The notes under the pieces are model-generated. The model was given only the letters and a program-made list of their open reading frames with translations, searched no databases and had not been told where the DNA came from. From positions 1 to 21,134 of the IMG/VR virus record IMGVR_UViG_3300046517_000316: a stretch of DNA of 21,134 nt; one strand, given 5' to 3'. The stretch is from a virus. A program made the translations under genes and the position numbers. Below are positions 12,810-21,134 of this stretch, one piece after another; position 1 is the first letter of the stretch; each line of letters begins with the position of its first letter.

Positions 12810-13637
12810 TTAGAGGAGACGGCCCAGGCGTTGGGCGTAGACGATGGGGTCGGTCGAGTTCTTCTTCACGTTGCAACTCGCGCAACAGAGTTGGAGGTTA
12901 GAGATCCAGTTTGAGCCGCCTTTGGAGAGCGGAACGATATGGTCCGCGTGGTGGCCTTTCTTCAGGGGTTCGCGGCAATAGGCGCATTTGCCCTTTTGGG
13001 CCTTGAATAGTGCCTTAAGTTCCGCAGCTGTGTGATTGCCTTCGGCGCTCGCCAACGATGCCCGATAACGCAATTTGATGGCCCGCAAGACTTCTGGATT
13101 ATCCTTACGATATTGCAGCACCCTCTCCGGAAATCGTTCGCGGTATGCTTGTGTGTAGCCTCGCTTTTTATCCGGGTTTGCTTTTTCCCATATGTCGTTG
13201 ACGGCTTTACGCTGCTCCTTGGTCGCCTCGCGGTATGCTCTGTAATATTCCGCGTTGGCGGCCTGCCAGCGTCGAGTATATTCAACGCCGCGCGCCGGAT
13301 CGAGGTGATACAAGCGCCGCCATTCGGCCCGTAACGTCTCCGGGTCCGTCGTTGCTTTTTTGTGCAGATATCGTTCGTGGCTGACGGCGTTTTTCTGCTC
13401 GCGATGCGCGTCGTCCCATTCTTTGGTCCTGCTCCGCTTCGCCGCAGCTTGTTCGTCCGTCATCGCTTCCACCCTGGTGCAAGCAATGCAGCCGCCGTCA
13501 ACCGTCTTTCGTTCACTGATGTGGCCGTGTTTCCGGCACGGCCTGTCCGGACCCATGAAGTAGCGCTTCAACCCCAGAGCCTTCGCCTGGACGCGCGTGA
13601 TTATCTCACCGCTATACGGTATGTAGGAAACAGCCAT
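12810..13637 (-). CDS. HNH homing-type endonuclease (freestanding)
   Basis: The likely start is ATG 13637 (275 residues) with AAGGTGAG about 10 nt upstream; the in-frame extension to 13733 has no support. The N-terminus has a zinc-knuckle-like unit (C34, H37, C50, C53, in PCRKHGH and GGCIAC), as in many phage HNH proteins. A long basic helical region (60-200) follows with many Arg/Lys/Tyr. The C-terminal HNH nuclease has C218/C221, DH at 232-233, NLQ near 247 and C-x2-C at 252-255 followed by N256. It lies downstream of the coat gene, a frequent insertion site for freestanding homing endonucleases. It probably cuts a related phage's late region. Confidence 0.88.
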   Translation of the reverse strand: MAVSYIPYSGEIITRVQAKALGLKRYFMGPDRPCRKHGHISERKTVDGGCIACTRVEAMTDEQAAAKRSRTKEWDDAHREQKNAVSHERYLHKKATTDPETLRAEWRRLYHLDPARGVEYTRRWQAANAEYYRAYREATKEQRKAVNDIWEKANPDKKRGYTQAYRERFPERVLQYRKDNPEVLRAIKLRYRASLASAEGNHTAAELKALFKAQKGKCAYCREPLKKGHHADHIVPLSKGGSNWISNLQLCCASCNVKKNSTDPIVYAQRLGRLL

Positions 13638-13674
13638 ATTCGGGCACTCACCTTGCTCGTTGTGGTTAGATGCT

Positions 13675-13722
13675 CGTGGAGTGCTGATAACACTCCACGG
13701 CATCGCCTCAGTGTAGCACTGA
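13675..13722. repeat. Two adjacent hairpins after the coat gene
   Basis: Between the coat stop (13762) and the HNH start (13637) lies a perfect 9-bp inverted repeat (CGTGGAGTG at 13675-13683, 7-nt loop, CACTCCACG at 13691-13699), with a second 6-bp stem TCAGTG/CACTGA (13708-13713 and 13717-13722, loop TAG). No T-run follows on the minus strand, so a simple Rho-independent terminator is not supported. It could reduce read-through from the coat gene, protect mRNA ends, or mark the endonuclease insertion boundary. Confidence 0.45.
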
Positions 13723-13761
13723 AGGGCGAACATCTGCTACTGCTTTACCGTTGCGATATCA

Positions 13762-14871
13762 TTACGCATCGGCGACCGCAGACGAGAAGATCGAGACAAT
13801 TCCCGCATCGACCGGCTTCGTCGTATCGACTGTCGGATCAGTGCCAAAACGTAACTTGCCGATGCCACGCATCTCCTGGATGCCGACCCCGTGCATATAT
13901 CCATAGTCGCGCGTGTTCGTCGTGCTCTTCATCCGTTGCGCCCACGCAACACCCAACGCCTGCGCGCCGCACAACGCCGACATGGCCACATCGATGCCGC
14001 CGCCGCCCGCTCCGGTGATGACCGGCATCTCTGGCACTTCGCGGATTATTACGCCATTGTACATAATGTCGCCGGCCGTGAAGAGCGGATTGTCGCGGCC
14101 ACGATCCCACGCATATTGCATCGCGTTGATGATGACGGGGTCCGTCATCAGGTCACGGAATGGCAATGAAGGCACGAACATCACGAACCATTCCTCGTCG
14201 TCATTGACGGAGACGGGGCGGATGCGCGGCGAGGCGGTGCGGGCTATGCGCTTGGCCAACGTGATCGTGGCGGCGGTCAGTTTGCCGGTCGCGGCCACGA
14301 TGGTGGCCAGGGCGGTCGCCATGACACCAGAGACGGCGTTCGCCTTGGAGTTGCCGAACAGCACCCGGTCGGCGTTGTTGACCATCCAGGTGTTGCGCTG
14401 GCCGGCGGTGGCCGCCGCATAGGATACCTGCACGTTGCCATCGGCGGTGATCGCCTCCAGCGACGTGATGATGTCGTTCCGCATCTTCTCCAGTTCCCAG
14501 ACCATCAGGGCTTCCCTGGCGGCCTCCCGGAGGTCGATGACGCTCTTCTGCTCGTCCCAATCCGACACCGCGACCGCGTGGCGGAACGCCGAGACGACGA
14601 GGTTCAGGCTGCGGGCGTTGAGTATTTCCTCATTGCCCTCCAATACGGTGTTTCCGGTTACGCCGGCTCCGACCAGTCGCCTGACGGTCGGGAAAACGAC
14701 GGTATCCCCGGCTTTTCTGGTGAGGTCTTCCCTCACCTGGATCATGGAACCCATCTGGGTGCCCATGTATCTGGCGAACTGATTCTTCCTGACGTACTCA
14801 GTAAAAAAGTCAGAGTCCCAGATAAGCGGGGTCAGACCCGGTCTCGCCGGGGTCACATTCATATCAGCCAA
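13762..14871 (-). CDS. Major capsid protein, N4-gp56/DUF4043 family
   Basis: This is a 369-residue protein. The N-terminal block WDSDFFTEYVRKNQFARYMG, the AGDTVVFPTVRRLVGAGVTGNTVLEGNEE segment (about 54-83), and FRHAVAVSDW... with DLREAAREAL match the N4-gp56-type major capsid family. The middle and C-terminal regions (ADRVLFGNSKANA, DEEWFVMFVPS, ALGVAWAQRMKSTTNTRDYG, GVGIQEMRGIGKLRFG) also fit phage coat proteins. The start is TTG at 14871: AGGAG lies 9 nt upstream, whereas the first internal ATG (14862) would be 18 nt away. The gene is flanked by HNH endonuclease genes, the upstream one divergent. The family match is firm; fold details are inferred. Confidence 0.88.
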   Translation of the reverse strand: MADMNVTPARPGLTPLIWDSDFFTEYVRKNQFARYMGTQMGSMIQVREDLTRKAGDTVVFPTVRRLVGAGVTGNTVLEGNEEILNARSLNLVVSAFRHAVAVSDWDEQKSVIDLREAAREALMVWELEKMRNDIITSLEAITADGNVQVSYAAATAGQRNTWMVNNADRVLFGNSKANAVSGVMATALATIVAATGKLTAATITLAKRIARTASPRIRPVSVNDDEEWFVMFVPSLPFRDLMTDPVIINAMQYAWDRGRDNPLFTAGDIMYNGVIIREVPEMPVITGAGGGGIDVAMSALCGAQALGVAWAQRMKSTTNTRDYGYMHGVGIQEMRGIGKLRFGTDPTVDTTKPVDAGIVSIFSSAVADA

Positions 14872-14885
14872 CCGACTATACTCCT
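14869..14885 (-). promoter_or_regulatory. SD and unusual TTG start of the coat gene
   Basis: On the minus strand AGGAG (14885-14881) lies 9 nt before TTG (14871-14869). The next in-frame ATG (14862) would need an 18-nt spacer, so the SD position selects TTG. For a coat gene, which needs high expression, a TTG start is odd. A 6-bp hairpin (CGAGTT/AACTCG, 14892-14897 and 14904-14909) lies just upstream of the SD. Confidence 0.55.
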
Positions 14886-14946
14886 AGAACACGAGTTGTT
14901 GGAAACTCGCTTTCTCTCGGATGAGCGTTGTGCTATTCATGTGGCC

Positions 14947-15477
14947 ATGCCAACAAAAGTCATCCCTTCCACCGAACTCACCGCCGCCATGGTTCGGCGT
15001 GCTCTGGACTACGATCCGGCGACCGGACTGTTGTTCTGGCGACACCGTGACGACGTCTTGCCTCGGGTGAATAAACGCCTCGCCGGCAAGCCAGCGGGGT
15101 GCAGGGATGGTCAGTATGGCTACCTCTCGGTGAGGCTTCATGATCGGCTGTATCAGGCTCATCGCCTGATCTGGCTGCACATCACGGGAGAATGGCCCAC
15201 CGGAGTCCTCGACCATGTCGACGGGAACCCGTCGAACAATGTCTGGAGCAATCTGCGGCCGGCCACGCGAGCGGAGAACAACCGAAACCAACGCAACCGC
15301 CGGGATGGCTTTCTGAAAGGCGCGGTTCGAGAACCCAAGACAGGGCGATGGACAGCCATGATCACGCTGGGCCGCAAGAACCATTACCTCGGCACCTTCA
15401 GCACCCAGGAAGAGGCACATGCCGCCTACACGGCAGCGGCCAAGCGTCTCCACGGGGAGTTTGCACGGTTCGATTGA
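14947..15477 (+). CDS. HNH endonuclease with AP2 DNA-binding domain, opposite strand
   Basis: This 176-residue protein starts at ATG 14947 on the plus strand, against the rest of the cluster; the in-frame extension further upstream is antisense to the coat gene and was rejected. Residues 55-112 are an HNH_3-type nuclease (YLSVRLH, AHR with H72, LDHVDGNPSNN with D89/H90, NLRPAT). Residues 122-176 are an AP2 DNA-binding domain (GRWTAMI, YLGTFSTQEEAHAAY, LHGEFA). This pair is the classical phage homing endonuclease architecture. No good SD precedes the start, so expression may be low. Its orientation shows an independent insertion between the scaffold block and the coat gene. Confidence 0.92.
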   Translation: MPTKVIPSTELTAAMVRRALDYDPATGLLFWRHRDDVLPRVNKRLAGKPAGCRDGQYGYLSVRLHDRLYQAHRLIWLHITGEWPTGVLDHVDGNPSNNVWSNLRPATRAENNRNQRNRRDGFLKGAVREPKTGRWTAMITLGRKNHYLGTFSTQEEAHAAYTAAAKRLHGEFARFD

Positions 15478-20819: not shown

Positions 20820-20929
20820 TAATCCCCTCCGGCGGATGATACATCCGCCCAATTTGACGCTTTTCCGCCAGTTATCAAGCGATTATCAGTTAGTCCCCTG
20901 ATCTGTCCCCGTTTCATGCGGCTGGTCAT
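20819..20929 (-). CDS. 36-aa microprotein between TerL and the packaging block
   Basis: The ATG at 20929 is preceded by GGAGGG (about 8 nt) and overlaps the TerL stop (TGATG); its TAA overlaps the next ATG (TAATG). It therefore fills the whole space between two genes exactly. The peptide is basic at the N-terminus (MTSRMKRGQIRG) and neutral after. No family is recognised. The perfect fit and SD argue that it is translated. Confidence 0.55.
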   Translation of the reverse strand: MTSRMKRGQIRGLTDNRLITGGKASNWADVSSAGGD

Positions 20930-21134
20930 CACGCCACCCTCCAGTCGCGCACTTCGTTGTCGTCTCGATTGAACGCCGCATCCCAGGAGTCACGGGGCTT
21001 CTGCCGCTCCATATCGCGAACGTAAGGACGTGACATCATGGCGTATCTGCAATTATGCACGAGAACGCTGTTGGCGAAGTATTCCTCAGCCTGGGCCACT
21101 GAGAGGTTGTAGACCCTTTGCCTTCCGGCGGTCG
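20929..21134 (-). CDS. Large terminase C-terminus interrupted by an intein, 5' part outside window
   Basis: Only the last 67 codons are visible. The frame begins with an intein C-terminal block: VYNLSVAQAEEYFANSVLV followed by HN, then Cys as the +1 residue (C codon at 21051-21049). This matches intein splicing blocks F and G (HN|C). After the junction come RYAMMSRPYVRD and about 30 more residues to a TGA at 20931-20929; 'RYAxMSRP' is the usual end of phage large terminase nuclease domains. The intein would lie in the nuclease domain close to the C-terminus. The position upstream of portal fits TerL. The rest of the intein and any homing endonuclease are beyond the window. Confidence 0.8.
   Translation of the reverse strand, partial: TAGRQRVYNLSVAQAEEYFANSVLVHNCRYAMMSRPYVRDMERQKPRDSWDAAFNRDDNEVRDWRVA
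21052..21134 (-). mobile_element. C-terminal end of an intein in TerL
   Basis: The last visible intein residues run up to H(21057-21055)-N(21054-21052), after which the extein resumes with Cys. The penultimate His and terminal Asn, with the preceding EEYFANSVLV block, are the standard C-terminal splicing elements. The N-terminal Cys/Ser block and endonuclease domain cannot be seen here. Confidence 0.75.

What the first reader, a model, noticed from the sequence alone, without database searches (positions are those of the whole stretch)
20929..21134. Intein in the large terminase, inserted just before the conserved RYAxMSRP end
The visible frame reads a typical intein C-terminal block (YNLSV...EEYFANSVLV, HN) followed by +1 Cys and then the terminase end. 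Known terminase inteins occur in phages; the insertion here is near the C-terminal end of the nuclease domain, so packaging would depend on splicing.
Basis: partly seen in the sequence, partly recalled or inferred. Interest (0 to 1): 0.75.

Follow-up and report, generated by a model that had tools for sequence, protein, structure and literature searches.

The report
Terminase intein hiding out-of-frame endonuclease
The end of this viral contig is the tail of a self-splicing insert (intein) in a phage DNA-packaging enzyme; in its relatives the insert carries, hidden in a second reading frame of the same DNA, a complete gene for a DNA-cutting enzyme that probably spreads the insert, a layout found here in about a hundred phage sequences but not in any paper I could search.

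Summary
In detail: window 21132-20929 (-) reads 27 residues of an intein C-terminus (…VYNLSVAQAEEYFANSVLVHN), then +1 Cys and the TerL tail. The contig ends there. A 99% identical IMG/VR homologue (L002) shows the rest: TerL nuclease domain, EDHAADS | 347-aa intein | CRYAMMSRP. Intein-less alleles with identical C-exteins exist.

The unexpected part is the endonuclease, which is not in the intein frame. The middle of the intein (about 220 codons) is a low-confidence linker in that frame; the -1 (+2) frame of the same DNA encodes a 249-aa HNH_3/zinc-finger protein with its own start and stop. Its last 15 codons lie in the window (21133-21086). The layout is present in 105 sequences, nearly all TerL inteins, including phages TJE1 and Highwayman and genomes of many phyla; none is in-frame. 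The HNH frame is conserved and has Shine-Dalgarno sites; the intein frame is kept stop-free far beyond chance but is otherwise unconstrained; free-standing relatives sit beside terL and have stops there.

Best explanation: a splicing intein whose homing endonuclease is translated separately from an overlapping gene. Precedent: the ShiLan hidden HNH, which lacks splicing domains. New variant; splicing and cleavage untested.

The parts
20929..21132 (-). 3' part of terL, open at the contig edge: end of intein plus C-extein
   Evidence: 99% identical to L002:1960-2160
21052..21132 (-). last 27 residues of the intein (blocks F and G, ending in HN)
   Evidence: TIGR01443 E 1.4e-5; coordinates
20932..21051 (-). 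C-extein of TerL, 40 residues starting with the +1 Cys (CRYAMMSRP...DWRVA)
   Evidence: 100% identical to intein-less alleles such as L010-L013 over the 39 residues after the Cys; coordinates
21086..21133 (-). 3' end of the nested HNH endonuclease gene in the -1 (+2) frame: DRRKAKGLQPLSGPG and stop, overlapping intein block F
   Evidence: same residues end the HNH ORF L002:1257-2003

Best explanation
The window holds the end of a TerL intein inserted right after the catalytic motif III of the TerL nuclease domain. Most likely the intein splices itself out after translation, leaving active TerL. Its homing endonuclease is not part of the spliced protein. It is an HNH_3 endonuclease with zinc-finger repeats, translated by internal initiation on the terL mRNA from a separate ORF that lies wholly inside the intein coding region in the -1 (+2) frame. 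It would cut intein-less terL at or near motif III, and repair would copy in the intein together with its hidden gene. Because the gene overlaps, the intein frame only has to avoid stop codons there and encodes an unstructured linker. Shown here: the anatomy, the conservation pattern, stop avoidance, start sites, family breadth, intein-less alleles and intein exchange between terL backbones. Inferred: splicing, translation of the HNH, its cleavage site, homing.
For: Anatomy: L002, L003, L006, L007, L084 have blocks A, B, F, G in frame with TerL and the HNH ORF at +2. Family: 64 of 80 pattern hits in IMG/VR and 32 of 71 in genome contigs are HNH ORFs lying fully inside a longer ORF; with single loci 105 in all, 100 at +2 and 5 at +1, none in-frame. 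Hosts are TerL with intein: of 64, 50 match phrog_2 TerL, 58 Pfam Intein_splicing, 48 TIGR01443. HNH frame is real: PF13392 E 2.8e-14, model pLDDT 89.8, identity 54-69% against 31-45% in the intein frame and 27-47% in the third frame. Intein frame kept open: mean chance 0.06 per case under synonymous recoding, product about 1e-124 over 72; of the intact free-standing relatives examined all but L243 carry stops in that frame. Own starts: SD matches of 5 or more bases at 43/160 start codons near the HNH N-terminus against 5/201 inside. Splicing halves model at pLDDT 93-98, linker mostly below 60, matching gp41-1 and RecA inteins. Mobility: L002 and L083 share a 98-100% identical intein in TerLs 89-93% identical nearby and about 65% farther out; L083 and L003 share a near-identical backbone upstream but different inteins.
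Against: No experiment. The window itself shows only 27 intein and 15 HNH codons. In the window's own lineage the SD is weak (GGTGAT, 11 bases upstream). HNH target site unknown; flanks of intein-plus and intein-less alleles were only 42-85% identical, so a homing event was not caught directly. Rows are related by descent, so the 1e-124 product is not a strict probability.
Confidence: 0.88

Rival explanations
1. The HNH has a packaging role (as HNH proteins beside terminases such as HK97 gp74 do) and is not a homing enzyme.
For: Free-standing relatives sit directly beside terL in several phages; HK97 HNH cooperates with terminase (discussed in PMC10448857).
Against: Presence is sporadic: close relatives with the same C-extein lack intein and HNH. 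Nested forms lie inside a splicing element, move between terL backbones and decay (L069, BL3).
Confidence: 0.06
2. The HNH is made by -1 ribosomal frameshifting from the N-intein, giving a fusion, not by internal initiation.
For: The HNH frame is -1 in 100 of 105 cases.
Against: A stop in the HNH frame usually lies just upstream of its ATG/GTG (median 4 codons). Slippery heptamers are not enriched (17/105 against 28/105 in a control region). SD sites are enriched. Five cases are +1. The bias is explained by that frame being intrinsically stop-poor.
Confidence: 0.05
3. The overlap is an artefact: sequencing frameshifts broke an in-frame HNH, or the HNH ORF is a chance reading frame.
For: Conventional inteins carry in-frame endonucleases.
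Against: About a hundred independent sequences, several cultured phages, the same offset, own starts and stops, conserved HNH frame.
Confidence: 0.01

Closest known systems
ShiLan domain and Pacc40 gp60 insertion (PMC11855218)
   Same: An HNH endonuclease gene hidden out of frame in an insertion that stays open in the host frame; sporadic, apparently homing.
   Different: ShiLan has no splicing blocks and is thought to stay in the protein; it sits in a DNA methylase. Here a complete intein surrounds the hidden gene and the host is the essential TerL.
Mycobacteriophage TerL inteins TerL1-a to -e, TerL6-f, Pham3880-g (PMC5050341)
   Same: Inteins in phage large terminases, with mobility.
   Different: All those lie in the ATPase domain and the tested ones act as conventional intein endonucleases; these lie at nuclease motif III and carry the HNH out of frame.
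Fractured genes: split inteins with a free-standing endonuclease gene between the halves (own knowledge: Dassa et al. 2009; not read here)
   Same: Endonuclease encoded separately from the intein splicing halves.
   Different: There the intein is physically split and the ORFs do not overlap; here the intein ORF is continuous and overlaps the endonuclease ORF. Phage BL3 looks like a split derivative.
Collaborative homing with free-standing endonucleases near introns (discussed in PMC10448857)
   Same: The endonuclease is not fused to the splicing element; relatives of this HNH sit beside terL.
   Different: Here the gene lies inside the intein coding sequence, so element and endonuclease are copied together.
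I-HmuI, HNH homing endonuclease (PDB 1u3e)
   Same: Only PDB sequence match to the HNH profile, E 0.0014.
   Different: I-HmuI is encoded in a group I intron (own knowledge) and lacks the repeated CxxC zinc motifs.

Membership tests
intein (protein-splicing element) | Block A with nucleophile at position 1 | tested here: met
   C1 invariant in 30 inteins; in L002; not visible in the window
intein (protein-splicing element) | Block B TxxH | tested here: met
   T60 (90% or more) and H63 (invariant) in A2
intein (protein-splicing element) | C-terminal (H/S)N followed by C/S/T | tested here: met
   HN|C in the window; TIGR01443
intein (protein-splicing element) | Intein-less alleles of the host protein | tested here: met
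   L008-L032 and others
intein (protein-splicing element) | Splicing activity | not testable with these tools
   no experiment
conventional full-length intein | Endonuclease domain in frame between blocks B and F | tested here: not met
   linker in frame has no domain; HNH in the +2 frame
HNH_3 endonuclease (PF13392) | Profile match above the gathering score with conserved HH...N motif | tested here: met
   52.9 bits against 24.8; H51, H52 and N60 invariant
homing endonuclease | Cuts the empty allele of its host gene | not testable with these tools
   only indirect: sporadic presence and intein exchange
ShiLan-type hidden HNH insertion | Out-of-frame HNH, host frame open | tested here: met
ShiLan-type hidden HNH insertion | No splicing domains | tested here: not met
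   splicing blocks present
large terminase TerL | ATPase and RNase H-like nuclease domains in the host ORF | tested here: met
   L003 ORF holds GGARGGGKT and nuclease motifs; L090-L092 match Terminase_6N/Terminase_3/3C

The most novel reading that the evidence does not exclude
TerL nuclease motif III is a global phage hotspot for a class of inteins whose homing endonuclease is always encoded in an overlapping out-of-frame gene with its own ribosome-binding site, so that the spliced element and its mobility gene are two proteins from one DNA stretch; the arrangement arose by free-standing HNH genes beside terL entering mini-inteins out of frame, and its decay yields mini- and naturally split inteins.
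Probability: 0.65. Interest if true: 0.9.

Novelty: new variant of a known kind. Interest (0 to 1): 0.8.

Why it matters
Textbook inteins carry their endonuclease as an in-frame domain. Here a large, widespread set keeps the endonuclease as a separate, overlapping gene. This widens the models of how endonuclease genes enter inteins (no in-frame fusion needed), offers a route to mini- and split inteins, gives a rare dense case of overlapping coding with one frame under protein selection and the other only under stop avoidance, and means that endonucleases are missed in annotated phage terminases. It also puts the ShiLan element, unexplained by splicing, next to a splicing counterpart.

Tried and rejected
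Extension of the contig: none is held. tblastn of the 67-aa tail in cultured phages: no match. Chance pattern hits were removed by hand: L121 and L130 in IMG/VR; L224, L226, L235, L259, L268, L270, L276 and the short L227, L262, L267 in the genome set. Foldseek of the HNH model gave no match below E 0.085, only weak zinc-finger matches and I-HmuI. Programmed frameshifting considered and not supported. Search for a homing event with near-identical flanks did not find one. Tree labels for nested rows failed to register in the change count; only the free-standing group (13 changes, at least 3 forced by starred branches) is usable, and many forks are open.

Full report
Observation. The frame 21132-20929 (-) is open at the right end of the record and reads an intein C-terminus, +1 Cys and a TerL tail. 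The intein end passes the TIGR01443 cut-off (25.2 against 15.6 bits). Nothing lies beyond: the assembly held is the window itself.

Completing the gene from relatives. A scan of IMG/VR gave 80 loci. L002 (99% identical tail; 94% identical DNA over 211 bases) and L003/L004 (89%) carry the intein in one long TerL frame...GEDHAADS | CFVAGTIIETARG...GTEDHPVF... | ...VYNLSVAQAEEYFANSVLVHN | CRYAMMSRP. L003 and L004 show the TerL ATPase motif GGARGGGKT upstream. The intein is 347 aa in L002, 283 in L003, 346 in L006 and 342 in L007. Many relatives lack it, among them L010-L013 with 100% identical C-exteins (EDHCGDxxRYAMMSRP). The insertion lies directly after the conserved DHxxD of nuclease motif III; that this is the catalytic motif rests on general TerL knowledge.

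The hidden gene. In the intein frame the middle of the intein is rich in S, T, A and R and has no recognisable domain. The +2 (-1) frame of the same DNA encodes an HNH protein (L002:1257-2003, 249 aa) with HIHHRD...NNQPDNL and repeated CxxC motifs. It scores 52.9 bits to PF13392 HNH_3. Its stop lies inside block F. The last 15 codons (DRRKAKGLQPLSGPG*) are in the window at 21133-21086.

Breadth. tblastn in annotated phages found the HNH in TerL genes of Tetrasphaera phage TJE1, Acinetobacter phage Highwayman and Rhodobacteraceae phage LS06-2018-MD07; in all three the HNH is at +2 and the TerL frame holds the intein blocks. A human gut phage contig, MT838676, is a further case. Free-standing relatives lie directly downstream of terL in PAE1, SN1, Poludnitsa, vB_EauM-23, CL2 and Ec1-ASingh, between terL and portal on the other strand in Shemara, and upstream of terS in BP10. 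Of the 80, 64 are HNH ORFs fully nested in a longer ORF with intein ends (one further nested hit, L121, is chance). Of the 71, 32 are nested, in contigs labelled Bacteroides, Frankia, Janthinobacterium, Planctomycetota, Patescibacteria, Simkania, Alphaproteobacteria, archaeal MAGs and others. With single loci this makes 105: 100 at +2, 5 at +1, and no HNH-frame ORF longer than 331 aa, so none is in frame with its host. Scans of the 64 IMG/VR host ORFs: 50 match phrog_2 TerL, 48 match phrog_30251 TerL, 58 match Intein_splicing, 48 match TIGR01443. Of 32 genome hosts, 24 match phrog_2. Insertion points differ by a few residues but cluster at motif III (DH|C, HDD|C, DA|C, DS|C).

Which frame is selected? 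Among L002, L084, L006, L007 and L003 the HNH frame is 54-69% identical, the intein frame over the same DNA 31-45%, the third frame 27-47%; differences concentrate at HNH third positions. So the HNH protein is conserved and the linker is not. The intein frame is nevertheless always open. Recoding each HNH with its own codon usage leaves that frame open in 6% of trials on average (0% for the other offset); the product over 72 cases is about 1e-124. Rows share ancestry, so this is an index, not a strict probability. A natural control agrees: intact free-standing relatives carry 1-25 stops in that frame, with L243 the one exception seen; L222 also has none but may be nested or truncated. The low stop density of this offset also explains why +2 dominates.

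How is it translated? The first ATG/GTG lies a median of 4 codons after the upstream stop in the HNH frame. Start codons near the HNH N-terminus have Shine-Dalgarno matches of 5 or more bases in 43 of 160 cases, internal ATG/GTG in 5 of 201 (Fisher p 5e-12); L114 has AAGGAGGT 5 bases upstream. Slippery heptamers are not enriched (17/105 against 28/105). Internal initiation is favoured. In the window's lineage the SD is only GGTGAT at 11 bases.

Structures. The L002 intein model is confident for residues 1-88 and about 310-347 (pLDDT mostly 93-98) and poor for the linker; Foldseek's best matches are gp41-1, RecA and DnaB inteins. The HNH model has mean pLDDT 89.8; no solved structure matches well as a whole, while the sequence profile finds only I-HmuI, E 0.0014.

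Mobility and decay. L002 and L083 have inteins 98-100% identical although the adjoining N-extein is 89-93% identical and the part beyond about 600 bases only about 65%; L083 and L003 have an almost identical upstream TerL but inteins 66% identical. This points to recent exchange. L069 has a 141-aa mini-intein with an out-of-frame remnant of the HNH tail. In Brochothrix phage BL3, gp2 ends in an N-intein after EDKDNH and gp3 holds a C-intein and CIDATRYAFEND, with an out-of-frame HNH remnant between: probably a natural split intein. In a tree of 150 HNH proteins the free-standing form needs 13 changes, at least 3 forced by well supported branches, so nested and free forms have interchanged; many forks are unresolved.

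Comparison. The nearest published case is the ShiLan domain, an out-of-frame HNH in a methylase for which no splicing domain was found (PMC11855218). Mycobacteriophage TerL inteins lie in the ATPase domain (PMC5050341). My searches of open-access full text found no intein with an out-of-frame endonuclease; subscription papers and preprints were mostly out of reach.

Verdict. Splicing, HNH synthesis and homing remain to be shown by experiment.

Noticed in passing
L292 (NC_015254.1, Brochothrix phage BL3) 727-2607: terL is split: gp2 ends in an N-intein, gp3 has a C-intein and the C-extein, with an out-of-frame HNH remnant between; likely a natural split intein in a cultured phage.
   Followed up: partly
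L069 around 1100-1600: 141-aa mini-intein at the same TerL site with an out-of-frame remnant of the HNH tail: a decay stage.
   Followed up: partly
L005 3-443: A different TerL intein a few residues upstream (VLSSN|TESEDHAADS), also with an HNH tail at +2.
   Followed up: partly
A4 host set (L105 and L164 are the longest hosts, about 1200 aa): Two of 64 host TerLs match in-frame LAGLIDADG_3, suggesting a second, conventional intein elsewhere in the same protein; which members was not checked.
   Followed up: no
L025, L027, L035: Intein-less TerL alleles that already have Cys at the +1 position (DSCRYAMMSRP): ready targets or former intein carriers.
   Followed up: no
window 12810-13733 (-): HNH/endonuclease VII-like gene (phrog_1035 E 2.4e-23) close to the capsid gene.
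   Followed up: no
window about 14578-15477 (+): ORF on the opposite strand that by eye resembles AP2-HNH endonucleases (LDHVDGNPSNN...GTFSTQEEAHAAY), next to the start of the capsid gene.
   Followed up: no
PHROGs phrog_30251: A 799-position 'terminase large subunit' profile that matched 48 of 64 hosts, in L103 over the intein region (protein 363-696); it seems built from intein-bearing TerL.
   Followed up: no
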